Shown here: one piece after another, positions 30,616 through 41,635 of the stretch
Layout: the number at the start of each line of letters is the position of its first letter
Numbering within the stretch: position 1 is the first letter of the stretch
NCBI RefSeq assembly: GCF_000203975.2
Contig: NZ_AFCF02000003.1
Coordinates: 317,327 to 381,326, forward strand
Direction of reading: 5' to 3'
Length of the DNA: 64,000 bases
Source of the DNA: Leisingera sp. ANG1
GTDB lineage: Bacteria; Pseudomonadota; Alphaproteobacteria; Rhodobacterales; Rhodobacteraceae
The notes under the pieces: generated by a model
The model's input: the letters and a program-made list of their open reading frames with translations, nothing else
What the model was told of the DNA's origin: nothing
Databases searched by the model: none
Program-made: the position numbers and the translations under genes

Positions 30616-30700
30616 ACAGCATTAGCCCGCCCTGGTACCGCACGGCAGCGGATCCGGCTTGCGGCCGGTCTCAGCCATTCTCGCAGGAGGAGGTCAGCTT

Positions 30701-32470
30701 GTGAGCGGCAAAGACAAGACTTCTACAGTCCGGCGTCAACTTGGGGCGGTACTGTTTGCCGATGTGGTTGGTTATGCCCGGCTTATGGGCAACGACGAAA
30801 TCGATACTTACAGTGCCCTCAAATCCCTCTTGGAGCAACTTGAAGCCGCCTGTCAGGCACATGACGGGCAGGTTGTTGCTGTTCGGGGCGACGGTGTACT
30901 TGCCTTGTTTGAAACGGCCACGGATGCGGTGAAGTTCGGGGTCGAGCTGCACCGTATTGCCGAGCAGAACAACAACTCGCGTCCGGAAGATCAGCAGCTG
31001 CGATTCCGGGCGGGGGTGCATATGGGTGAAATCCTTGTCGACGACCGCGGTATTCACGGCGACAACGTCAATATTGCTGCCCGCCTGCAAGAAATCGCCG
31101 AACCGGGCCGGGTGTATGTCAGTGCAGCTGTGTACGAGCAGATCCGAAACCGGTTGCGCTTTGGCTTTGAATTCCTGGGCCCCCAACAGCTCAAGAACAT
31201 TGCAGACCCAGTTCCTTCCTATTGTGTTCGCAGCGAAATCGAGGGCGCCGCGATGGCCGCGACTTTACGCCCGGACCGCCCGCCTGCGCATCCGCAACTG
31301 CCGGGCATTCCATCGGTTGCGGTGCTGCCCTTTACTAGCTTGGGCGACGAGGAAACCGACAGCTGGTTTGCCGATGGGCTGACAGAGGACATCATCCTGA
31401 ACCTGTCCAAGTTCAAAAACCTCTTTGTCATTGCCCGCAATTCCGCATTCTTCTTCAAGGCGCGCTCAATGCCGCCTCAGGACGCGGCGCGCGAACTGGG
31501 GGTGCGCTATGTGGCACGGGGCAGTGTCCGGCGGGCAGCGTCCCGGATCCGCATAGCAATAGAACTGATTGATGCAGATTCCGGCAGGACCATCTGGGGT
31601 GAACGCTATGACCGGGATATTGATGATATCTTTGCAATTCAGGATGAGGTCACAGACGCCATCGTTGCAGCCACCGCGGTTTTGATCGAAGCGCACGAGC
31701 GCAAGCGTATGTCGCAAGCCGCCCCTGCTGACCTTGCCGCCTACGGCTATGTGCTGCGTGGCCAGCAGTATATCTTCCGTTACACACGGCAAGACAATCA
31801 CGAAGCGCAAACGCTGTATGAAAGGGCTCTGGCCCGGGACCAGGACTATGCCAGGGCATCGGCAGCCATTTCCCGCACGATGAATATCGATTGGCGGTAT
31901 TCCTGGGCCAAGGATGCGGACCACGCGCTGGACACAGCCCTGGCCTTTGCGCAAAGAGCTGTGGAACTGGACCCGACCGACGCCCGCGGCTTTGGCGAAT
32001 TGGGCTTTGTTCACCTTTACCGTAAGGAGCATGATGCCGCTCTTGGCGCTTACAGGCGCGCCCTCTCACTCAACCCGAATGATGCCGATCTGCTGTCGGA
32101 TTACGCTGACGCGCTGGCACATTCCGGTGACAATGAAACCGCGATCAGCAACCTGAAACAGGCCATGCGGCTCAATCCTTACTTCCCGGATCAGTACCTG
32201 TGGCACTTGGGCGGGGCTTACTACAATCTCAAGGAATACGATGCAGTGATTGACACGCTGACTAAGATGAATAACCCGACAGAGGGCCAGCGGATGCTGG
32301 CTGCCAGCTATGCCCAACTCGGCAAGATGGAAATGGCGCGTGACATGGCTGCCCGTCACCGCGAGGCCCATCCGAATTTTTCGCTGGACCGCTGGACGAA
32401 GGTTCAACCTGACCGCCTGGAGGAAGACACCCTGCATTTCGTGGAGGGCCTGAAGAAGGCAGGTTTTTAA
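30701..32470 (+). CDS. Class III adenylate/guanylate cyclase with TolB-N-like and TPR domains
   Basis: 589 residues from a GTG at 30701 that has AGGAGG eight bases upstream; a TTG at 30659 is the longer option. Cyclase domain about 10-180: metal-binding Asp21 in LFADVVGYARLMG, RGDGVLALF, HMGEILVDDRGIHGDNVNIAARLQ. A middle domain (SVAVLPFTSLGDEETDSWFA) resembles the part found in many alphaproteobacterial cyclase/TPR proteins, followed by TPR repeats (ALDTALAFAQRAVELDPTDA, AYRRALSLNPNDADLL). No membrane segment. Probably makes cAMP under control of a protein partner bound by the TPRs. It converges on the YcaO operon. Confidence 0.88.
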   Translation: MSGKDKTSTVRRQLGAVLFADVVGYARLMGNDEIDTYSALKSLLEQLEAACQAHDGQVVAVRGDGVLALFETATDAVKFGVELHRIAEQNNNSRPEDQQLRFRAGVHMGEILVDDRGIHGDNVNIAARLQEIAEPGRVYVSAAVYEQIRNRLRFGFEFLGPQQLKNIADPVPSYCVRSEIEGAAMAATLRPDRPPAHPQLPGIPSVAVLPFTSLGDEETDSWFADGLTEDIILNLSKFKNLFVIARNSAFFFKARSMPPQDAARELGVRYVARGSVRRAASRIRIAIELIDADSGRTIWGERYDRDIDDIFAIQDEVTDAIVAATAVLIEAHERKRMSQAAPADLAAYGYVLRGQQYIFRYTRQDNHEAQTLYERALARDQDYARASAAISRTMNIDWRYSWAKDADHALDTALAFAQRAVELDPTDARGFGELGFVHLYRKEHDAALGAYRRALSLNPNDADLLSDYADALAHSGDNETAISNLKQAMRLNPYFPDQYLWHLGGAYYNLKEYDAVIDTLTKMNNPTEGQRMLAASYAQLGKMEMARDMAARHREAHPNFSLDRWTKVQPDRLEEDTLHFVEGLKKAGF

Positions 32471-32524: not shown

Positions 32525-33376
32525 TCAATCACCTGAGCCACGCGCTTTTGCACCACTGACCTTGGCACCGCTGACTTTGGCACCACTTACTTTAGCACCG
32601 CTTACTTTTGCGCCACTGACCTTGGCACCGCTCACCTTCGCTCCACTAATGTCTGGGCCGCCTCCAAAGTAGACATCCAGAAGCACCTGCTCCAGCATAC
32701 CGGTCATCACATCCATGCGGATCGAGTAATCTGCCTTGTCATACTCCCAGACCATGATGTCGTTTGCGAACTGGTACTCGGCTGACGCAACACCTGTCAC
32801 TGACGGATCCAAAGGCGCACGGGCGCCTTGATTGGCTGGCAAGTTATCTGTCGCGCTTCTGCCCTCTCCATGCACCAGAAACAGCGTCGGCTCAGGCAGT
32901 TCAAAATAGGTGCCTTCGTAAGCAAACCCATATATCCGTGCAAACTTTGCGTGCAGGCTGAGCTGGGCATCCAGCAGATTGTTCCGGCCACGGCCGCGAA
33001 GCCCGGCCTGCTTGTAAATTTGCTTTGGAATGTCTTTGGTTTGGATCCAGACGGTATCGCCGAACTCAGTTCCCTCCAGAACTGCAACCCGCTCCTCGGC
33101 AGAGACCTTCATCTCCGAGACCAGCTTCAGAGTGTTGCCAGCACCTGAGGTAACTTTGTAGACACCATTCTCGTTTGCGTTGTTTCGCCGTACCAGAACC
33201 AAATCGTTCTCGGCAATTTCCACGCCGTCCAGTTCTGTGTCGATGTTGTTCAGGTTCACCTTCTCGACAGTCGCCACGCGCACCGTCTTTTTGACGTCCG
33301 ATCTGACGATCTGCAGATCTTTCAGGAGGCGTCCAAATAACAGCACTTCAGAGAAACTCAGCAAAGACTCGGCCAC
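32525..33376 (-). CDS. Protein with phage-tail-like domain and seven C-terminal [I/V]SGAK repeats
   Basis: 283 residues. Residues about 30-120 resemble the small module seen in phage tail/fibre proteins (VRVATVEKVNLN, then LDGVEIAENDLVLVRRN and ENGVYKV, usually VRVAT...IDGV...GDRVLVK...ENGIYVV). The middle part has no resemblance I know. Residues 243-277 are seven exact pentapeptides, one ISGAK and six VSGAK, then ARGSGD. Read in the AKVSG register these fit the pentapeptide-repeat (A-x-L/V-x-x) consensus. The start is GTG at 33376 with GGGAG about ten bases upstream. It is the last gene of the YcaO/TfuA/protease operon and the best candidate for the modified substrate; that role is inference. 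Confidence 0.65.
   Translation of the reverse strand: MAESLLSFSEVLLFGRLLKDLQIVRSDVKKTVRVATVEKVNLNNIDTELDGVEIAENDLVLVRRNNANENGVYKVTSGAGNTLKLVSEMKVSAEERVAVLEGTEFGDTVWIQTKDIPKQIYKQAGLRGRGRNNLLDAQLSLHAKFARIYGFAYEGTYFELPEPTLFLVHGEGRSATDNLPANQGARAPLDPSVTGVASAEYQFANDIMVWEYDKADYSIRMDVMTGMLEQVLLDVYFGGGPDISGAKVSGAKVSGAKVSGAKVSGAKVSGAKVSGAKARGSGD
32546..32650 (-). repeat. Coding tandem repeat, 7 x 15 bp ([I/V]SGAK)
   Basis: Seven 15-base units encode (I/V)SGAK. Codons vary between units (Ser AGT/AGC; Gly GGA/GGC/GGT; Ala GCG/GCC/GCA/GCT; Lys AAG/AAA; Val GTG/GTC/GTA) while the peptide does not change. The repeat is kept at protein level and is not a recent slippage product. Confidence 0.9.
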
Positions 33377-33520
33377 CGTACATACTCCCGTGGCTATGAC
33401 AACAACACCAGAAGATCCTTCCGCAAGGTGCCGGCTGCAAACCTCGCCTGCCCCGCTTCCGCAAAACTCTCCCTCAGGATGAAAGTATCACAAACAGGAA
33501 AAAAATTACAGAAGTAACGG

Positions 33521-34822
33521 CTACAATCCATCCGGAACCCGTGTCCGCACGGAATGTGCGTGGCTGTCGTCGCCCGCTTCGCCCAGGCGCGGACCGGCCT
33601 CGACCAGGCCGATTCCGCGCATGCGGAAGTTGCCCTCGATGATCGAATGAAAAGCACCGCCCGTCGAATTTCCGTCGACCAGCAGCAATGCCTGCTCTAC
33701 CGCGGCATAGGTCAGAGTCTCCGCATCCAGCATGCTCCACGCCGCCGCCAGATAGGAGCCTAGAATATCCCGAGCTTCCAGCAGCGCCAGACGGAACCCT
33801 TCCGGATCAGCAGCATAACGGTCATCAAATAGGGCCTGCATAACCTCGCCGTAATAGGGACTGTCTTCCAGTTGGTCGGACAAATCCTCCATTTCCGGTG
33901 TAATGAGTTCATGAACCAGCAACCGCTCATGGAAGATATCCACTAGGATATCGAACATTGCCCCGGTCAAGGGTTCGGACAGCGCGTGCTCGCTGTTCCA
34001 GCCGCAAACAAAATCATCCAGCAACCGTGTGTTTGCGGCCATCCGGATTTGCGCGTTTCCGGCAAGCTCTGCGAAACGGTTTAGCTGGTTGAAAGTGTAT
34101 AGGTTGCCCCGGGTGCTTTCCAGCAACTCCTCAACCACCGATCCGAAATGCAGCGATGCAATCAATGCAACCATGTCTGCCGCGGATTCGTGAAATCCAT
34201 AGTATTCACCCGGAACATCCTCGGAAACCGGCATCCCGGTGACGCTGTAAATGATGGCATGTCCGATCTCATGGGCAACCACGTCAAAATTCAGGCTGTA
34301 GGCGCGGTACTCATCGCCGTGTTCGCTGGTACCCCCTGTTTCCAGAAAACCCCAACCGATGTGCGCGTTATCCAGGCTTGGCAGCAGCGACAATTCCAGC
34401 CGGTCGTAATCGCGGGCGAAGTGCCAGGGGATTTTATGGCCGAAATAGGCCTCCCACACATCCAAGGTGAAATGCGCCGCGGCAAAAAGATGTGCTGCTT
34501 CGAACCTCGGGTCGGAAGGCTCAATATGAAAGAAGTGCCCGTCCTCATCCGGTTCAGGCGGTGCATGCAGCTCACCGTGCCAGGGCGGCAGATACATGCC
34601 TGGCCCTTCAGGCCCCTGCACGATCGCTCCATAAGGGATCGTCTTGCCCTGCGCGTTAACTGTATACATCCGCGGCCCCGAAGGCCCCGGACCAATGGTG
34701 CCCGGCGGGGCTGAAATCTCGACCAGCTCCAGCACCGGCTCGTCCGTTCGGAACGGTGATTGCGGAAACAGCAGAAACCGCGTTCCCGGCGCTTCTTCTG
34801 CCGTCTCAAAAGGATCGTCCAT
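33521..34822 (-). CDS. Zinc metalloprotease-like protein (HExxH...E, gluzincin type)
   Basis: 433 residues, no signal peptide or membrane segment. The zinc motif HEIGH is at 184-188 in FDVVAHEIGHAIIYSVTG, and the third ligand is probably Glu212 in YYGFHESAADMVALIA, 24 residues after the motif, as in thermolysin/fungalysin-type gluzincins. The first 90 residues are Pro/Gly-rich (PGTIGPGPSGP). The ATG at 34822 has GGAGG seven bases upstream. It lies 24 bp behind the TfuA gene. In the YcaO/TfuA context it could cleave a modified protein, but no cytoplasmic precedent is claimed. Confidence 0.75.
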   Translation of the reverse strand: MDDPFETAEEAPGTRFLLFPQSPFRTDEPVLELVEISAPPGTIGPGPSGPRMYTVNAQGKTIPYGAIVQGPEGPGMYLPPWHGELHAPPEPDEDGHFFHIEPSDPRFEAAHLFAAAHFTLDVWEAYFGHKIPWHFARDYDRLELSLLPSLDNAHIGWGFLETGGTSEHGDEYRAYSLNFDVVAHEIGHAIIYSVTGMPVSEDVPGEYYGFHESAADMVALIASLHFGSVVEELLESTRGNLYTFNQLNRFAELAGNAQIRMAANTRLLDDFVCGWNSEHALSEPLTGAMFDILVDIFHERLLVHELITPEMEDLSDQLEDSPYYGEVMQALFDDRYAADPEGFRLALLEARDILGSYLAAAWSMLDAETLTYAAVEQALLLVDGNSTGGAFHSIIEGNFRMRGIGLVEAGPRLGEAGDDSHAHSVRTRVPDGL

Positions 34823-34846
34823 ACATCCTCCAATCCTGCGGAGGTA

Positions 34847-36211
34847 TCACCCGGCTTGTCCTGCCTCGTCCCTGCTGTCCGGCGCAGGCCTTGTGTTGAC
34901 ACCCTGATGATACATGAATTCACGCCGGATCAGCTCAAAGAATTCCTCGGTGCCAAGCCCGACCGACAACGCGTGCGCCTCAAGATCCTCCGGGATGTCT
35001 CGCTGGAGGACGTATTCGAAATACCATGCCGTCATATGTAACCGCTCGCTCTGCTGTTTGTGACTGTCTGGCTGCGCCTGCTCCGCTATCAGCTTTTCCT
35101 TGGCCTCGGCCCGCGCTTTTAATCCGGCGAAAGCGCCTGCCAACTGCAGTTCCGCCAGCAAGCAGGGCTCCAGCTCTTTCTGCAAAGCACTGACAGCCTC
35201 GGAGATTTGAGCCGTTTCCCCAAGTTTTGCCTCATATTGCATAGCCGTTAGCCCATTAGCTACCAGCCACGCCTGCAGATCCTTGCTGCGCAATAGGCTG
35301 TGCTCCTGCCGGTGACTGTTCAGCTGCGCCAACAAAGCCTTGCGCTCAGGCGGCACTCCTGCCTTGCGCACCTTTTGCAGTGCCAAGCAGCGTAGCGCAG
35401 CCCGGTTCCTGAACTCGGCAAAGCGCTCGGGTTTCAGCCGCAGTTCGTCCAGTACCCACCGCTCTGCATCCTGCAATGTTTGTTCCTGCGCCTCCGCGCG
35501 GCGCACCAGCCCTTGCCAGGCGAGAGTCTCCTCCATTTGTTCACTCATTTGGCGATTTCCCGGCGCCCCAGCGCCAGAAAACACCGCCATCTGCGCCAGC
35601 ATCTCCTGCGCGTCATTGCGCTTGGCATCAATCGCGCCAGTCTCCAGCCAAGAGGAAAACCGGTCCCGCCAGGGCGACACCGGAAGATCTGCCAAAATCT
35701 GTTTCCAAGTCCGCTGCTGGTAGAAACGCGCCTTAGCTGTCTCAAGGACCGTTGCCGCCTGTGCCGCATCCAAAACCATGCCGCTGACCGCGCGGTCCAC
35801 CGTCGCACGGATCGAGACCATTGGCTCACTCAGCGGTGCAAAACCCAGCTCGGCAGGGCTGTGCAGGACCGCAACCTCGTCATCGTCGGCGATCGCGCCT
35901 GAGGCATAAGCCGCATAGATTCTGCCAACTCCAATCATACCAAAGGCCGAAAGCTCTGCCGCCCGCAAGGCTCCCATGCTGGCGCTTCCGAACACGGTAA
36001 TGCCCTGCTCCATCGCCCACAGGATCTCCTTGTGCCAGACCGAGGGAACCCCTTCGAAATAACCGTCAATCAGCCCAATTGCTTCGGCACCCTGGCGCGC
36101 TGCTCTGTAGATATCCCCCTGACCGGCAGGGGGAAGCACGATGGAGCCTGGCAGCAGAGCTTGCGCCTCCTCCGCACCGATAGTCGGTCCGGCGAACACC
36201 ACTGCAGTCAC
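34847..36211 (-). CDS. tfuA: TfuA-like protein (YcaO partner)
   Basis: 454 residues. The first 200 or so are the TfuA core: VVFAGPTIGAEEAQALLP, AIGLIDGYFEGVPSVWHKEI, WAMEQGITVFGSASMGALRA, then DDDEVAVLHSPAELGF. The remaining 250 residues are helical and extend beyond the minimal TfuA domain; similar long forms occur in proteobacteria. TfuA proteins work with YcaO in backbone thioamidation (methyl-CoM reductase glycine, thioviridamide-type peptides) and in trifolitoxin synthesis. Its start overlaps the ycaO stop (ATGA), so the two are made together. Confidence 0.88.
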   Translation of the reverse strand: MTAVVFAGPTIGAEEAQALLPGSIVLPPAGQGDIYRAARQGAEAIGLIDGYFEGVPSVWHKEILWAMEQGITVFGSASMGALRAAELSAFGMIGVGRIYAAYASGAIADDDEVAVLHSPAELGFAPLSEPMVSIRATVDRAVSGMVLDAAQAATVLETAKARFYQQRTWKQILADLPVSPWRDRFSSWLETGAIDAKRNDAQEMLAQMAVFSGAGAPGNRQMSEQMEETLAWQGLVRRAEAQEQTLQDAERWVLDELRLKPERFAEFRNRAALRCLALQKVRKAGVPPERKALLAQLNSHRQEHSLLRSKDLQAWLVANGLTAMQYEAKLGETAQISEAVSALQKELEPCLLAELQLAGAFAGLKARAEAKEKLIAEQAQPDSHKQQSERLHMTAWYFEYVLQRDIPEDLEAHALSVGLGTEEFFELIRREFMYHQGVNTRPAPDSRDEAGQAG

Positions 36212-37413
36212 TGGCTTGCCTCCGCTGCTTGTAGCGCCCGCGTACCAGCGATGAAGTCAGGATCGTCGTGCGGCGCTTCCAGCCCAGGGATCACTGCACG
36301 CACCACGGATACTCCCAACCCAGGACGCGACAGATCCACTGTCAGCACTTGCTTCATTCCAGCTGCTGCCAGCCTGACGAGCAACCATGACTGATCCTTT
36401 TCGAAGGAAGAGGAGGAAAACGCCGGGCAGTCTTGAAACCGGACCACGGCCTTGGACTGGGAGAACAACCGGCGCACATATGATGCTCGCTCAGCGGAAG
36501 CCGCTGGCGTAAACTCCTCAGGGTTCAGGTCATCACGTGCGCCGGAAATATAAGTCAGCCGGGTCTGCGCCGCCTCTGTAAGCGCCCTTAACGCAGCAAT
36601 AGCCCTGTCTGGGTGACAGCCGCTGCCAATGCCGATATGTCCGACCCGGCTGCCAGCCTCGCAGATCATGCAATGAAAAGCCGGAACCCCAATGTCAGAA
36701 GTGATGTTCCAAATACCGGCGTCCAGCCCCGCCGCGGCAAACCGGCCGATCGCTTCTTGACAGCGTGCGTCATCTATTGTGTCCGGATCAATACGAGGGC
36801 CTGGTGCCGCATGGTGCCACAGTGTTATCGCATCGCGTTCAATCAGCTCGCAAATCGCATGGCAGGAAGCTTCCGCAAGGCTATTGCCCGACGCCAGCCC
36901 GTTTGTGGTGCGCGGGAACGCCCCCTGCCCGCCGCTTGGAGGACCAGTATAGTCAGTATCCACCATTTCGTAGGGAAGCCAAAACCGGGTTCCAGTTGCC
37001 AGGTCGGTGCCTTCAATCCACAACATCCGCCGTTGCGGGTCAAAGCTGGCACCGGTCACACGCGGCAGCCGCGCCACATCCGCAACCATGGCCTCTTTTT
37101 GCAATTCATGAAAGCTGGCTGAACGCAGCGGCAGGTTAATCCGCTCCGCGTGCCAGGCCTCAATAGCCTCCATCACACCGGAGGCCTTCGCCGCCTCCAG
37201 CGTCAGCCCCTTGCCCAGCGACACTGCAACTGACCGGGAGTTCGGCCGCGTAACCATAACCGTGGGCAGGCCCACTCTGTCCAGCCCGGTCAGATTGGCA
37301 ATCCGGGTAATCCCCATATCAGTCAGATGCGGACGCACTCTTGCGAGCGTCTGCGCAGGATCACACAGCCGGTGGGTGTCATGCAAATAGCCTTTCTGCT
37401 GCGCCTCGGGCAT
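36208..37413 (-). CDS. ycaO: YcaO-family cyclodehydratase/thioamidase
   Basis: 401 residues. YcaO signature segments: SLGKGLTLEAAKASGVMEAI with AWHAER, NGLASGNSLAEASCHAICEL followed by IERDAITLWHH (ATP/Mg region), and GIGSGCHPDRAIAALRALTEAAQTR. The C-terminus lacks the PxPxP tail of azoline-forming YcaOs, which fits a TfuA-dependent type. It uses ATP to activate a backbone amide. It is the first gene of the operon, 144 bp downstream of torT on the same strand; no clear promoter or short precursor ORF is seen in the gap. Confidence 0.9.
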   Translation of the reverse strand: MPEAQQKGYLHDTHRLCDPAQTLARVRPHLTDMGITRIANLTGLDRVGLPTVMVTRPNSRSVAVSLGKGLTLEAAKASGVMEAIEAWHAERINLPLRSASFHELQKEAMVADVARLPRVTGASFDPQRRMLWIEGTDLATGTRFWLPYEMVDTDYTGPPSGGQGAFPRTTNGLASGNSLAEASCHAICELIERDAITLWHHAAPGPRIDPDTIDDARCQEAIGRFAAAGLDAGIWNITSDIGVPAFHCMICEAGSRVGHIGIGSGCHPDRAIAALRALTEAAQTRLTYISGARDDLNPEEFTPAASAERASYVRRLFSQSKAVVRFQDCPAFSSSSFEKDQSWLLVRLAAAGMKQVLTVDLSRPGLGVSVVRAVIPGLEAPHDDPDFIAGTRALQAAEASQ

Positions 37414-37557: not shown

Positions 37558-38610
37558 CTACTGATGCGGCTTAAAATCGAAAACAGGCACGAAACTAGCG
37601 GGAGCCAGGGTCTGGTCCAGCAAGTCCCCTGACTCTGTGCTGCGGTCAAAGATCCTGATGGCAGGCCCGGCGTGTTTGATATTCAATCGGCCTTCGATTG
37701 CGCGCACTGCCATTTCGACTGCCAGCCGCCCTTGAAGCACGGGAAAATCCGTCGGCGCAGCAATAATGCGGTCGCGAAGGACCCCGCGGTAGACCGCATG
37801 AGTCATGTAGTCCGACACAACTTGAACTTGCCCCTGCATACCACGGGCACGCAACACTGACACTGCGGCTTCTGCAGCAGGCGCGGAACCGGCAATGTAG
37901 TCTAGGTCCGGAACCGCATCTAATGCTTCCTCAACTAGCCGCACCTGAATTTCGCGCCCGGTATCACCATATTTTGTAACCGCGATCTTGGCTGAACTGC
38001 CAGCAAGTGCGGCGCGGAAACCCTCCTCGACAAAGGTCACCCAACCCGCCTTTACCGGCCCTGGAAACCAGGCAACCTTGACTTCAGGTGCCCCCTTTGG
38101 ATGGCGCGCGGCAATGAGCCTGCCTGCTTCGGCCCCCATTTCCGTCCACGACACCCCTACTTTGGCCGTGATCCCGGCATCGGCAATGTCATTGACAGCA
38201 GCAATTACCGGAACAGAAGCCGAAATCCGCTCAACCGTGCTGGTAAGGCCTGCGAAAGATACAGTGCCAAGAATCAGCGCATCAGCACCATCTGCGACAC
38301 AAGCCTCAGTCTGCTGTATTTGCCGCCTGAGGTTGGGATAACCTCCTGCTTCGACCAGCTTGAAAGACACCCCCAGCCGGGCGGCTTCCGCCACCATGCC
38401 GTAGTTAACACTAAGCCAATAGGCATCTTTTAAGTGCGGATAGGCAATACACAGGCGCCATTCCTGCTCCGCCCGTTCGAGCGGCGTATAGTCCATGGCC
38501 TCCAGCCCGCTGCCGTAGTCAAAAGCGGTCCGCGGCACCTGCAGCCGCCAGCTGTCCGCAGTCGCCATTGTGCTGAAACACGTGAAAAGCAATAGCCACA
38601 CTGCGCGCAT
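37558..38610 (-). CDS. torT: TorT-like periplasmic TMAO-sensing protein
   Basis: 350 residues from the ATG at 38610 (GGGGACCTC upstream). Signal peptide MRAVWLLLFTCFSTMATA, then a periplasmic-binding-protein fold. It closely matches Escherichia coli TorT in LCIAYPHLKDAYWLSVNYGM and the following LVEAGGYPNLRRQI, and in GFRAALAGS and YRGVLRDRIIAAPTDFPVLQ. TorT binds TMAO and signals to TorS. It is divergent from torS with 94 bp between, as expected for a matched pair. Confidence 0.92.
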   Translation of the reverse strand: MRAVWLLLFTCFSTMATADSWRLQVPRTAFDYGSGLEAMDYTPLERAEQEWRLCIAYPHLKDAYWLSVNYGMVAEAARLGVSFKLVEAGGYPNLRRQIQQTEACVADGADALILGTVSFAGLTSTVERISASVPVIAAVNDIADAGITAKVGVSWTEMGAEAGRLIAARHPKGAPEVKVAWFPGPVKAGWVTFVEEGFRAALAGSSAKIAVTKYGDTGREIQVRLVEEALDAVPDLDYIAGSAPAAEAAVSVLRARGMQGQVQVVSDYMTHAVYRGVLRDRIIAAPTDFPVLQGRLAVEMAVRAIEGRLNIKHAGPAIRIFDRSTESGDLLDQTLAPASFVPVFDFKPHQ

Positions 38611-38704
38611 GAGGTCCCCTTCTCCAAGGTTGGAGGATAGGCAGCGGAACCGAAAAGGGAAATTCAAATTTGCGAAAACGGCAAATGCAGGCGAAAGTTC
38701 CTGA

Positions 38705-41635
38705 ATGTTAGGAAAGCTCGGCCTTGGCGGAAAACTGAGCCTCGCATTCATCGTGATTGCGGGACTGCCAACCCTTGCCGGGATTCTTGGGCTGATCGAA
38801 TTGCGTGTGCTTGCACGGCGACAGGCAGAAGTGATCAGCCAGACCATTCCCGCCATCGCCGAGGTCCGCGGCATGGCTGAGGAAAGCACCCGGATCATAG
38901 CCATTGCCCCGGAACTGGCAGGTGTCGCAACTCAGGCGGAGCGGGCAAACCGGGCGCAGTTTCTGTCCGCTCAGATCGGGGCGCTCACCCGGCGGCTGGA
39001 CGCCCTGGAGCGTGGCGGTATTGCCGGATCCAGCCCGCTGCGGGAAACCGTTACAGATGCTGCAAGGGTACTGGCGCTGCTTGATGAACTGGTGGAAACC
39101 CGCATCGCGCTGCACAGCGGGCTCAAGCAGTTGACCACCCGCAACCTGACCGCCGCGAATAACCTGCTGAGCATGGCCGACACGCTGGTTGCAAATGCCG
39201 AAATGGGCACAACAGCCGTCATTTCGAGCCTCTACGGGCCGGGCAGCTCTCCAGTGGAGGAGCAGGCCCGCACCGATTTGCTGGACAAGCTGATTGAGGT
39301 GGACCTGTTTCAGCTTGGCCTGATGTTCGAACTCAGATCCCAAACTGCAGAAATCGGACTGTTGATAAACCGGATCGAGGAAGCCGGAACTGTGGAGGAA
39401 TTGGAGAAAATTGAAAACGCGTTGACCAGCCGCCTGGAGATCGTATCCAGACGGATCCAGGCAATTCGCGATCCCGGCCGACGGCAGCAGGCAGAAAAGT
39501 ATGCAGCGCAGTTGCAGACCTTGCCAGAAAGCAACGCAGGCCTATTCGTCCTGCGTGCCCGGATACTGACGACCGAAACCCGCATCACCGCTCTGAAGCA
39601 GGAACTGCAGAACACCGCGCTGCAGCTGGGTGATGAGGCATCGGCCGTCGCTGATCAGGCGCAAGCGCGGGCGATCAGTTCGGGCAATGCCGCCGCCGCC
39701 GACATTCAGCGGGCACAGCTGCGCAATGGTTTTGCCGCCATCACCGGCTTCCTTCTGTCGCTGGCTGTCTTGTGGTTCTATGTTCGAGGCAGCATCACCC
39801 ACCGCCTCAACAATCTGGCGGGCACCATGGCCGCGCTTATGCGCGGCCAACTGGACCACCCGGTCCGCCCCCGCGGGCAGGATGAAATTGCCCGTATGGA
39901 GGCGGCAGTGGAGGTGTTCCGCCAGCAAGCGCTCGACAAGATGGAACTGGAAAAGGTCCGCGACCGTAACGAGCAAGAGTTGCGGGAGCATCGCAACAAT
40001 CTCCAGTCGCTGGTGGATGATCAAACCGAGCGTCTGCGGGAAGAAGTCGAAGCCCATGATAAGGCCCGGCAGAAGGCAGAAGCTGCCGATCAGGCCAAAT
40101 CTGAATTCCTGGCAATGATGAGCCACGAAATCCGCACTCCAATGAACGGTGTGCTGGGTATGCTGCGCAGCCTCTCTGACGACGGTCTGCCGCCCCGGCA
40201 AATGGAACGCCTGCGGGCAGCGCTTGTCTCCGGCCAGAACCTGCTTAAAATTCTGAACGACATCCTGGACTACTCCAAGATCGAAAGCGGCGCGCTGAAA
40301 CGGGATGATGTCACATTTTCCCTTCGCAGCCTAGTGGATGACATCGTCGTCCTTCTGCGCCCGGGGGCGGACGACAAGGGAGTGCACCTCTGGCTCGATG
40401 CACCGGAGGAACTGCCTGATGTGGTGAAAGGTGATGCTGCCAAGCTGCGGCAAATCCTGTTCAATCTGCTCTCCAACGCACTCAAGTTCACTGATGAGGG
40501 AGAAGTCATTCTGCGGGCCCGCACCACTGGCAGGACAGCCGGGATGCACCGGGTCACATTCGAGGTCAGCGATACCGGCAAAGGTATCTCAAAAGAGGCC
40601 AAGGCGCGCATCTTCGAAGCATTTGAGCAAGAGGACACAGACACCGCCCGCAAGTTCGGCGGCACAGGGCTGGGGCTGGCGATCAGCAAGCATTTCGCCC
40701 AAGCCATCGGCGCACGTTTGTCTATGGAAAGCACAAAAAATGTCGGCTCAGTTTTCACCTTGGCAGTAGAGCTGGCGCCAGGCGATCCTGCGGCCTTGGA
40801 ACCCGAGGAGCCGCCGGTTCAAATCAACCATGCCGGGATTGCGCTTTCGATACTGGTGGTGGAGGACAATGAAATCAACCAGATGGTCGCGCAGGGCTAC
40901 CTTGAGCGTATGGGCCACAACTGCCAATGTGTGACTGCCGCAGAAGACGCGCTGGCCTTGCTGCCTGCATCCCGTTTTGACCTTGTTCTAATGGACGTGA
41001 ACCTTCCAGGCATCAGCGGAACTGAAGCTACCCGCCGCCTGCGTGCGATGCCGGACCCTCGGCTGTCCAATCTTCCTGTCATCGGTATTTCAGCACATGT
41101 GCAGGAGGAGCAGATCGAAACCCACTTGCAGGCTGGAATGAATGGGTTTGTGGCCAAGCCAGTCTCTCCGGAACGACTTGCAAAAGCACTGGAGAGCGTC
41201 ATCCAAGGCCGCGAAGGCGCGGTCTACCTGTCAGCCCGCCAGCATTCACCTGAGAGGGACAGGCATACCAGTTTACATAGGCAGATGCAGGAAAACACAC
41301 AGGATCTTGGAGCCGAGAAGGCCTTGGAAATCGCCGCACTCTTCCAGGAGGAACTGCCCCGGGGCCTTGAGAGAATGGACGCGGCCCATACCGCGCAGGA
41401 TCTTGCCCAGCTTGCAAAAGAAGCCCACCGTGCCAGGGGCGCCGCAGCCAGCTTTGGCCAACAAGACTTGGCTGGCCTGTTTGCTGAACTGGAAGAAGCG
41501 GCTGCCAACGGGCACCAGTCAGTGGCTGCAAAGCACATGAGGGAACTGAGCGCTCTAACTCCCAAAATTCTGGAGTCGCTAGACAGCGTATTACGCGACT
41601 ACAGAAATCAGCCCAAGGGTGCAGTGAAAACATAG
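38705..41635 (+). CDS. torS: TorS-like tripartite hybrid histidine kinase
   Basis: 976 residues. Membrane segment about 10-32, long helical periplasmic sensor, second membrane segment about 340-360, HAMP, coiled coil, HisKA with His474 in [16 protein letters not shown], HATPase, receiver with Asp764 in [13 protein letters not shown], and an Hpt domain with His908 in [13 protein letters not shown]. This is the order of E. coli TorS. It would pass phosphate to TorR when TorT reports TMAO. Its 3' end overlaps the convergent torR by 28 bp. Confidence 0.92.

What the first reader, a model, noticed from the sequence alone, without database searches (positions are those of the whole stretch)
32525..37413. 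YcaO-TfuA operon whose only candidate substrate is a 283-residue protein with seven SGAK repeats
Four minus-strand genes are packed together: ycaO and tfuA overlap by ATGA, a HExxH metalloprotease follows after 24 bp, and a protein ending in seven identical [I/V]SGAK units follows after 144 bp. YcaO/TfuA pairs install backbone thioamides or azolines, normally on short precursor peptides or on methyl-CoM reductase. No short precursor frame is visible in the gaps. The repeats have drifted in codon use but not in sequence, as expected if each unit is recognised by an enzyme. Hypothesis: the repeat tail is modified (thioamide on Gly, or oxazoline on Ser) and the protease trims or releases it. This arrangement is not one I know.
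Basis: partly seen in the sequence, partly recalled or inferred. Interest (0 to 1): 0.82.

Follow-up and report, generated by a model that had tools for sequence, protein, structure and literature searches.

The report
Repeat-tail protein with thioamide-type enzymes
Many marine and soil bacteria carry a conserved gene set that probably swaps oxygen for sulfur in the repeated tail of one protein and then cuts that tail, which would be a new form of a known peptide-modifying system.

Summary
In detail: ycaO, tfuA, a HExxH protein (PROT) and a repeat protein (REP, seven [I/V]SGAK units) form one minus-strand operon. A scan kept 80 alphaproteobacterial PROT loci of 166 found: YcaO and TfuA lie upstream in 80 of 80 and REP downstream in 76. 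Three more keep REP about 20 kb away after a rearrangement; one contig ends. REP has a conserved front domain and an exchangeable tail: SGAK/SGAR/SGSR pentads, GMSAR, SDLVGR, GMNV, SRSGG, or no repeat. Units within an array are nearly identical in protein (69 of 73 arrays all-K or all-R) but close to saturated at silent sites, so each unit is under selection. Best reading: REP is an unusually large precursor whose tail is thioamidated by YcaO-TfuA, most likely on the residue before Lys/Arg, then cut by PROT. No chemistry was shown. Against: one Rhizobium plasmid group has cyclase-PROT-REP without a local YcaO-TfuA, and the pentads resemble pentapeptide-repeat proteins. My eight literature searches found no description of this system.

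The parts
36208..37413 (-). YcaO, presumed thioamide-forming amide activator (401 aa)
   Evidence: PF02624 E 9e-86; TIGR03266 243.9 bits, cut-off 365; closest solved chain 6pe3, MJ1094, E 8e-39
34847..36211 (-). TfuA with a long C-terminal extension (454 aa), presumed sulfur-supply partner
   Evidence: PF07812 E 1e-47; NF033432 202.4 bits, cut-off 235.2; 6xp8 E 1.5e-30 over residues 3-172
33521..34822 (-). PROT, HExxH protein, presumed gluzincin-type metallopeptidase (433 aa)
   Evidence: H184, E185, H188, H211, E212 and D216 invariant in 46 of 46 aligned members; only weak family matches
32525..33376 (-). REP, candidate precursor protein (283 aa, GTG start)
33305..33376 (-). REP residues 1-24, conserved N-terminus (ESLLSFSEVLLFGR type)
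   Evidence: mean identity to window 0.59 over 57 relatives; alignment
33011..33304 (-). REP residues about 25-122, inserted phage-tail/head-decoration-like domain
   Evidence: PHROG matches to residues 23-116; 22 of 57 aligned relatives cover it by half or more
32663..33010 (-). REP residues 123-238, conserved front (leader-like) domain
   Evidence: mean identity to window 0.54 in 57 of 57; no core family found in Pfam
32546..32650 (-). REP residues 243-277, ISGAK plus six VSGAK, candidate core
30659..32470 (+). class III nucleotide cyclase with TPR repeats, linked fifth gene (603 aa)
   Evidence: PF00211 E 6e-13 and TPR families; linkage

Best explanation
REP is the substrate. Its conserved front domain acts as a large protein-like leader and its C-terminal tail as the core. 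TfuA supplies sulfur and YcaO activates backbone amides in each tail unit, placing one thioamide per unit, most likely on the residue before the basic residue (Ala of GA-K/R). PROT then cuts the tail, perhaps before the one large hydrophobic residue of each pentad, releasing short thioamidated peptides. The linked cyclase may sense or report the process through a cyclic nucleotide. Shown here: gene content, linkage, selection on the units, exchange of tails, the conserved PROT motif. Inferred: that REP is modified, the site, the cutting, and the role of the cyclase (the weakest step).
For: YcaO-TfuA upstream of PROT in 80 of 80 kept loci; REP downstream in 76. In Leisingera and two relatives REP, TfuA and PROT are present in the same 22 of 23 genomes and all absent from G008. 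All four genes are kept where a rearrangement separates them. Six TfuA loci without PROT have no REP core. Tail units: pS 0.745, pN 0.080 on average over 73 arrays; 69 of 73 arrays pure in K or R against 2.0 expected, while 21 of 1665 unit pairs are identical in DNA. Front domain fixed, tail exchangeable. Precedents: repeated cores and thioamide before Arg, thioamide on Asn before Lys, folded leader recognised by a YcaO. Two ThiS-family genes in the own genome.
Against: Rhizobium group A has cyclase-PROT-REP with a repeated tail and no YcaO or TfuA in the stretches read. L230 has TfuA-PROT-REP without a YcaO found nearby. A Nostoc plasmid has PROT without YcaO, TfuA or REP. The pentads resemble pentapeptide-repeat proteins (PF00805 in 42 of 58 members). 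No exporter was seen beside the operon. No chemistry or structure was available.
Confidence: 0.55

Rival explanations
1. The tail is a short pentapeptide-repeat beta-helix or binding stalk; YcaO-TfuA modifies something else, and REP is only a partner or target of PROT.
For: PF00805 matches 42 of 58 members weakly, best E 1.7e-7; profile matches in the PDB fall on the tail, including NP275-NP276; phage pentapeptide proteins match the tail.
Against: 33 control pentapeptide arrays average 0.43 within-array identity (range 0.27-0.72) with Leu at 508 of 638 central positions; 73 REP arrays average 0.94 (range 0.69-1.0) with Val there. Relatives replace the pentads by 4- or 6-residue repeats or none.
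Confidence: 0.17
2. YcaO-TfuA modifies a single site in the folded front domain of REP, as with McrA or uL16, and the basic tail serves binding or localisation.
For: The closest YcaO and TfuA families act on a folded protein, McrA (passages); the front domain is the constant part.
Against: Does not explain why units are kept alike within each array or why the tail changes type as a whole.
Confidence: 0.12
3. PROT, REP and the cyclase are the true core; YcaO-TfuA is an accessory that many lineages carry but that is not needed for REP function.
For: Three group A Rhizobium regions lack it. In six group A genomes the two TfuA genes lie on other contigs or over 500 kb away, the same number as in G835, which has no PROT match.
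Against: Adjacent in 80 of 80 kept loci and in distant members with about 35-40% PROT identity. 114 of 120 Rhizobium genomes have a TfuA that might act in trans.
Confidence: 0.1
4. Ser in each unit is turned into oxazoline or oxazole.
For: YcaO enzymes can do this (passages); Ser is in 501 of 526 units.
Against: TfuA marks thioamide systems (passages); Ser is dispensable in 25 units; no azoline partner among the seven proteins scanned.
Confidence: 0.04

Closest known systems
Thiovarsolin system (VarA, VarY, VarT)
   Same: YcaO-TfuA pair with a repeated core; thioamide just before a basic residue, Pro-Arg
   Different: Short precursor within a 20-120 aa search window, up to five imperfect repeats, no dedicated protease, actinobacterial; here a 150-315 aa protein, five to ten near-identical units, a linked HExxH protein and a cyclase
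Std cluster (StdA, StdG, StdH)
   Same: YcaO-TfuA thioamidates the residue before Lys, and a linked peptidase trims the product
   Different: Single SNKEWQE motif, an S8/S53-carbamoyltransferase fusion and an MNIO, none of which was seen here
McrA thioglycine system (archaeal YcaO-TfuA)
   Same: Nearest curated families for both enzymes; a protein-sized substrate (passages)
   Different: Both score below the equivalog cut-offs; the substrate is methyl-coenzyme M reductase in archaea, with no repeated tail
Nitrile hydratase-like leader precursors (MprE7 and YcaO MprC)
   Same: Folded, protein-like leader recognised by a YcaO (passages)
   Different: 81-residue leader of another family and azoline chemistry; the REP front domain matched no Pfam core family
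Pentapeptide-repeat proteins (PF00805)
   Same: Five-residue period with Ala and a hydrophobic residue two apart
   Different: REP units are far more uniform, use Val not Leu and K/R not N/D, and relatives drop the five-residue period

Membership tests
YcaO-TfuA thioamidation systems | Adjacent ycaO and tfuA genes of the right families | tested here: met
   Pfam over cut-off, four-base overlap; adjacent in 80 of 80 loci
YcaO-TfuA thioamidation systems | Thioamide on a substrate | not testable with these tools
   Needs mass spectrometry
Thioamidated RiPPs (thiovarsolin-like) | Precursor gene linked to ycaO-tfuA with a constant leader and a variable core | tested here: met
   REP front domain constant, tail exchangeable
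Thioamidated RiPPs (thiovarsolin-like) | Short precursor peptide of 20-120 aa as used in genome mining | tested here: not met
   REP and relatives are about 150-315 aa; window given
McrA-glycine thioamidation proteins (TIGR03266, NF033432) | Score over the equivalog cut-off | tested here: not met
   243.9 of 365 and 202.4 of 235.2 bits
Pentapeptide-repeat proteins (PF00805) | Score over Pfam's gathering cut-off | tested here: not met
   Window REP 15 bits, cut-off 20.2; some relatives score better, best E 1.7e-7
Pentapeptide-repeat proteins (PF00805) | Quadrilateral beta-helix fold | not testable with these tools
Gluzincin metallopeptidases (M4-like) | HExxH plus a downstream Glu ligand | tested here: met
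   Invariant HExxH and H-E-x-x-x-D in 46 of 46; role of the Glu as ligand is inferred
Gluzincin metallopeptidases (M4-like) | Family-level sequence match | tested here: inconclusive
   Only weak matches: M12B-like in 8, M4 in 2, M36 in 1 of 46
Gluzincin metallopeptidases (M4-like) | Proteolytic activity | not testable with these tools
   Needs an assay

The most novel reading that the evidence does not exclude
A widespread alphaproteobacterial signalling module: a folded carrier protein bears an array of thioamidated peptide units, a dedicated metallopeptidase releases them as short protease-resistant messengers, and a linked nucleotide cyclase reads them out. Thioamide peptides would then serve signalling inside the cell rather than act as antibiotics.
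Probability: 0.2. Interest if true: 0.92.

Novelty: new variant of a known kind. Interest (0 to 1): 0.7.

Why it matters
A 2021 survey reported over a thousand proteobacterial TfuA-related clusters while all known TfuA-YcaO products then came from Actinobacteria (passages). That survey used RiPPER at standard settings, whose default window is 20-120 aa, so a precursor of 150-315 aa would be passed over. If REP is the substrate, a sizeable set of orphan clusters gains a concrete, testable substrate, a probable protease and a possible signalling output. A protein carrying five to ten thioamides in one tail would be striking chemistry.

Tried and rejected
Chance repeat: rejected; arrays with drifted codons recur in 73 arrays. 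Recent expansion or gene conversion: rejected; 21 of 1665 unit pairs are identical in DNA. REP without enzymes in four Leisingera-type genomes (L035-L038): first a counter-example, then explained by a rearrangement that left YcaO-TfuA-PROT about 20 kb away. A short precursor in the gaps: only short frames or frames overlapping neighbours exist; their conservation was not tested. Anti-phage defence: PADLOC matched only the cyclase, to Pycsar cyclases, which is domain homology. Fold comparison of REP and PROT: not possible. PDB and Pfam searches gave no family for the REP core and only weak ones for PROT. Phage search: eight records, weak matches to insert or tail. Literature: eight searches showed no description of a YcaO-TfuA, metallopeptidase and repeat-protein operon; most subscription papers are not held, and of the papers found I opened passages or single sections of eight only. 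In one search the term ThiS also matched the word 'this'. A passage lists adenylate cyclases among genes of complex graspetide loci that also hold YcaO/TfuA, so cyclases near such loci are not wholly new.
Full report
Observation. The four minus-strand genes are present as described. YcaO (36208-37413) and TfuA (34847-36211) are clear by Pfam. The overlap is GTGA rather than ATGA. PROT (33521-34822) has HEIGH; REP (32525-33376) ends in ISGAK, six VSGAK and ARGSGD. REP residues about 25-122 resemble phage head-decoration and tail-fibre domains; six of the 21 relatives first fetched (L046-L051) lack the insert.

Conservation in the genus. REP has strong matches in the own genome, 19 of 20 same-genus genomes and two same-family genomes, G074 and G075 (29 of 148 genomes at E up to 0.001). 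Of the other seven genomes, G027 proved to be a true relative; the remaining matches are weak, mostly on the tail, and the loci tested hold pentapeptide-repeat arrays. G021, not matched, is also a relative. Contigs of equal length in named records show the genus to be Leisingera (inference). TfuA and PROT are present in 22 of 23 genomes tested, and the one without, G008, also lacks REP and has no close cyclase (best match E 2e-11). In 17 of 21 fetched neighbourhoods the four genes keep their order. In four (L035-L038) REP and the cyclase stand about 19.5 kb from YcaO-TfuA-PROT with opposite orientation, and both pieces are kept, with seven intact units.

Conservation beyond the genus. A scan of species genomes with a PROT alignment confirmed 166 relatives; the best 80 were kept, from Leisingera, Ruegeria, Roseovarius, Roseobacter, Roseibium/Labrenzia, Hoeflea, Nitratireductor, Mesorhizobium, Aurantimonas, Neomegalonema, Kiloniellales and others. 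YcaO and TfuA lie upstream of PROT in 80 of 80 (a few YcaO genes are cut by contig ends). REP follows in 76 of 80: 73 with repeat arrays, L173 imperfect, L179 without repeat and about 1.8 kb away, L149 front part only. L103, L105 and L107 are the split genomes, and L146 ends 99 bp after PROT. In 398 Pseudomonadota genomes PROT matched in 10; seven are members. G738 and G830 carry distant PROT-like genes without YcaO, TfuA or REP in the 19 kb read; G201 was not read. Of 148 relatives 28 have TfuA: by my count 25 have PROT and REP with it, and G051, G129 and G140 do not. Six TfuA loci without PROT (L240-L245) show no REP core.

Tail. Seventy-three arrays (72 loci plus the window) hold 526 units, five to ten per array. 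Position 1: V 471, I 39, L 9, M 7. Position 2: S 501, A 22, G 3. Position 3: G 525, S 1. Position 4: A 502, S 22, T 2. Position 5: K 310, R 216 (the pattern limits which residues could be counted). Mean pS is 0.745, mean pN 0.080, and pS exceeds pN in 73 of 73. Sixty-nine of 73 arrays are all-K or all-R, against 2.0 expected if units were independent, while 21 of 1665 unit pairs are identical in DNA. Loci are related, so these are not independent trials. Selection seems to keep the units of one array alike without recent copying.

Exchangeable tails. Relatives with the same front domain end in GMSA[RK] (L180), imperfect SGA[MR] (L173), SDLVGR (L228), GMNV (L230), SRSGG-type units (L246, L247, L250) or single-copy basic tails (L179, L221-L225, L229, L249, L251-L253). 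A front-domain profile finds REP in 17 of 20 of the more distant loci, weakly in L224, L225 and L251 (E 0.002 to 0.05), which a second profile ties in at E 3e-16 or better; L226, L227 and L248 have none. A fixed front and a changing end is leader-core logic. A small residue before Lys or Arg recurs in most tails. The exception, GMNV, is the one locus where TfuA-PROT-REP has no YcaO found nearby (a single case).

Enzymes. The closest solved relatives are MJ1094 for YcaO and 6xp8 for TfuA. PROT keeps HExxH and a downstream H-E-x-x-x-D in 46 of 46 aligned members, with weak similarity to known families. Cutting before a hydrophobic residue is a habit of thermolysin-like enzymes recalled from general knowledge; each pentad has one large hydrophobic residue, at position 1. 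That PROT cuts there is inference.

Cyclase. A class III cyclase lies within 4.5 kb of PROT in 65 of 80 loci, and in 61 of 69 with enough sequence on both sides. Of the eight misses, L103 and L107 are split, L143 and L179 have it at 5.6 and 4.6 kb, and L111, L118, L174 and L176 have none (L111 keeps a short remnant). In L221-L225, L238, L239, L249 and L251-L253 a cyclase-domain match lies 5.2-5.4 kb upstream on the same strand; in the three proteins scanned (L249, L251, L253) it is a cyclase-AAA protein just before ycaO. The own genome has 16 matches to the cyclase query in 4.6 Mb, the next best 39% identical, so chance linkage is unlikely. L230 and Nostoc L248 have none. One of six TfuA loci without PROT (L243) also has a cyclase gene of this kind upstream, and L240 has a match 4.4 kb away on the other strand.

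Evidence against. PROT occurs in 126 plasmid records. In three group A Rhizobium regions cyclase, PROT and REP stand without YcaO or TfuA in the stretch read. Eighteen of 120 Rhizobium genomes have a group A PROT at 86% identity or more; each has two or three TfuA genes, but 114 of 120 have TfuA in any case. In the six read by position the TfuA genes are not near PROT. A trans-acting pair is possible and unproven. The Nostoc plasmid has PROT near haloperoxidase-like, ferritin-like and radical SAM genes. The pentads resemble pentapeptide repeats, although control arrays are less uniform (0.43, range 0.27-0.72, against 0.94, range 0.69-1.0).

Literature. Thiovarsolins arise from repeated APR/GPR cores with the thioamide between Pro and Arg and no dedicated protease (passages and one section). 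Std thioamidates Asn before Lys (passages of a preprint). A YcaO can recognise a folded leader (passages). TfuA-cluster mining is (passages, one section), RiPPER's 20-120 aa window (one section). TfuA as a hydrolase of thiocarboxylated ThiS comes from passages in other papers, since the original was not held.

Verdict. The finding is real, widely conserved and not chance. The substrate claim is well supported by comparative evidence and unproven by chemistry. I file it as a new variant of a known kind: a YcaO-TfuA system with a protein-sized, tail-exchangeable precursor, a linked HExxH protein and a linked cyclase.

Noticed in passing
window 33011-33304 (REP residues 25-122): A phage-tail/head-decoration-like domain is inserted between the REP N-terminus and core; two diverged versions occur in Leisingera and several relatives lack it.
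   Followed up: partly
L035-L038 with L097-L100: In four same-genus genomes a rearrangement separates REP and the cyclase from YcaO-TfuA-PROT by about 19.5 kb, yet all are kept.
   Followed up: partly
L246:6015-10302, L247, L250: Rhizobium plasmid group: cyclase-TPR, PROT, REP with SRSGG-type tail, then a protein of about 110 aa of unknown family; no YcaO or TfuA nearby.
   Followed up: partly
L248:6427-14190: Nostoc plasmid: PROT homologue beside a PAP2/vanadium haloperoxidase-like protein, two ferritin-like proteins and a radical SAM protein, without REP.
   Followed up: no
L230:9123-12488: TfuA-PROT-REP with a GMNV tail (no basic residue in the unit) and no YcaO found in the 19 kb read.
   Followed up: partly
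L243:8690-14807: A YcaO-TfuA pair (YcaO 50% identical to the window's) without PROT or REP, with a large cyclase-domain gene upstream.
   Followed up: no
window 34847-36211: TfuA is 454 aa, about twice the solved 217-aa TfuA chain; the C-terminal half has no assigned function. TfuA is shorter in G074 and G075 (open frames 265 and 269 aa).
   Followed up: no
window 37558-41635: A periplasmic-binding protein and a TorS-type hybrid histidine kinase lie divergently next to ycaO in the window and several same-genus genomes.
   Followed up: no
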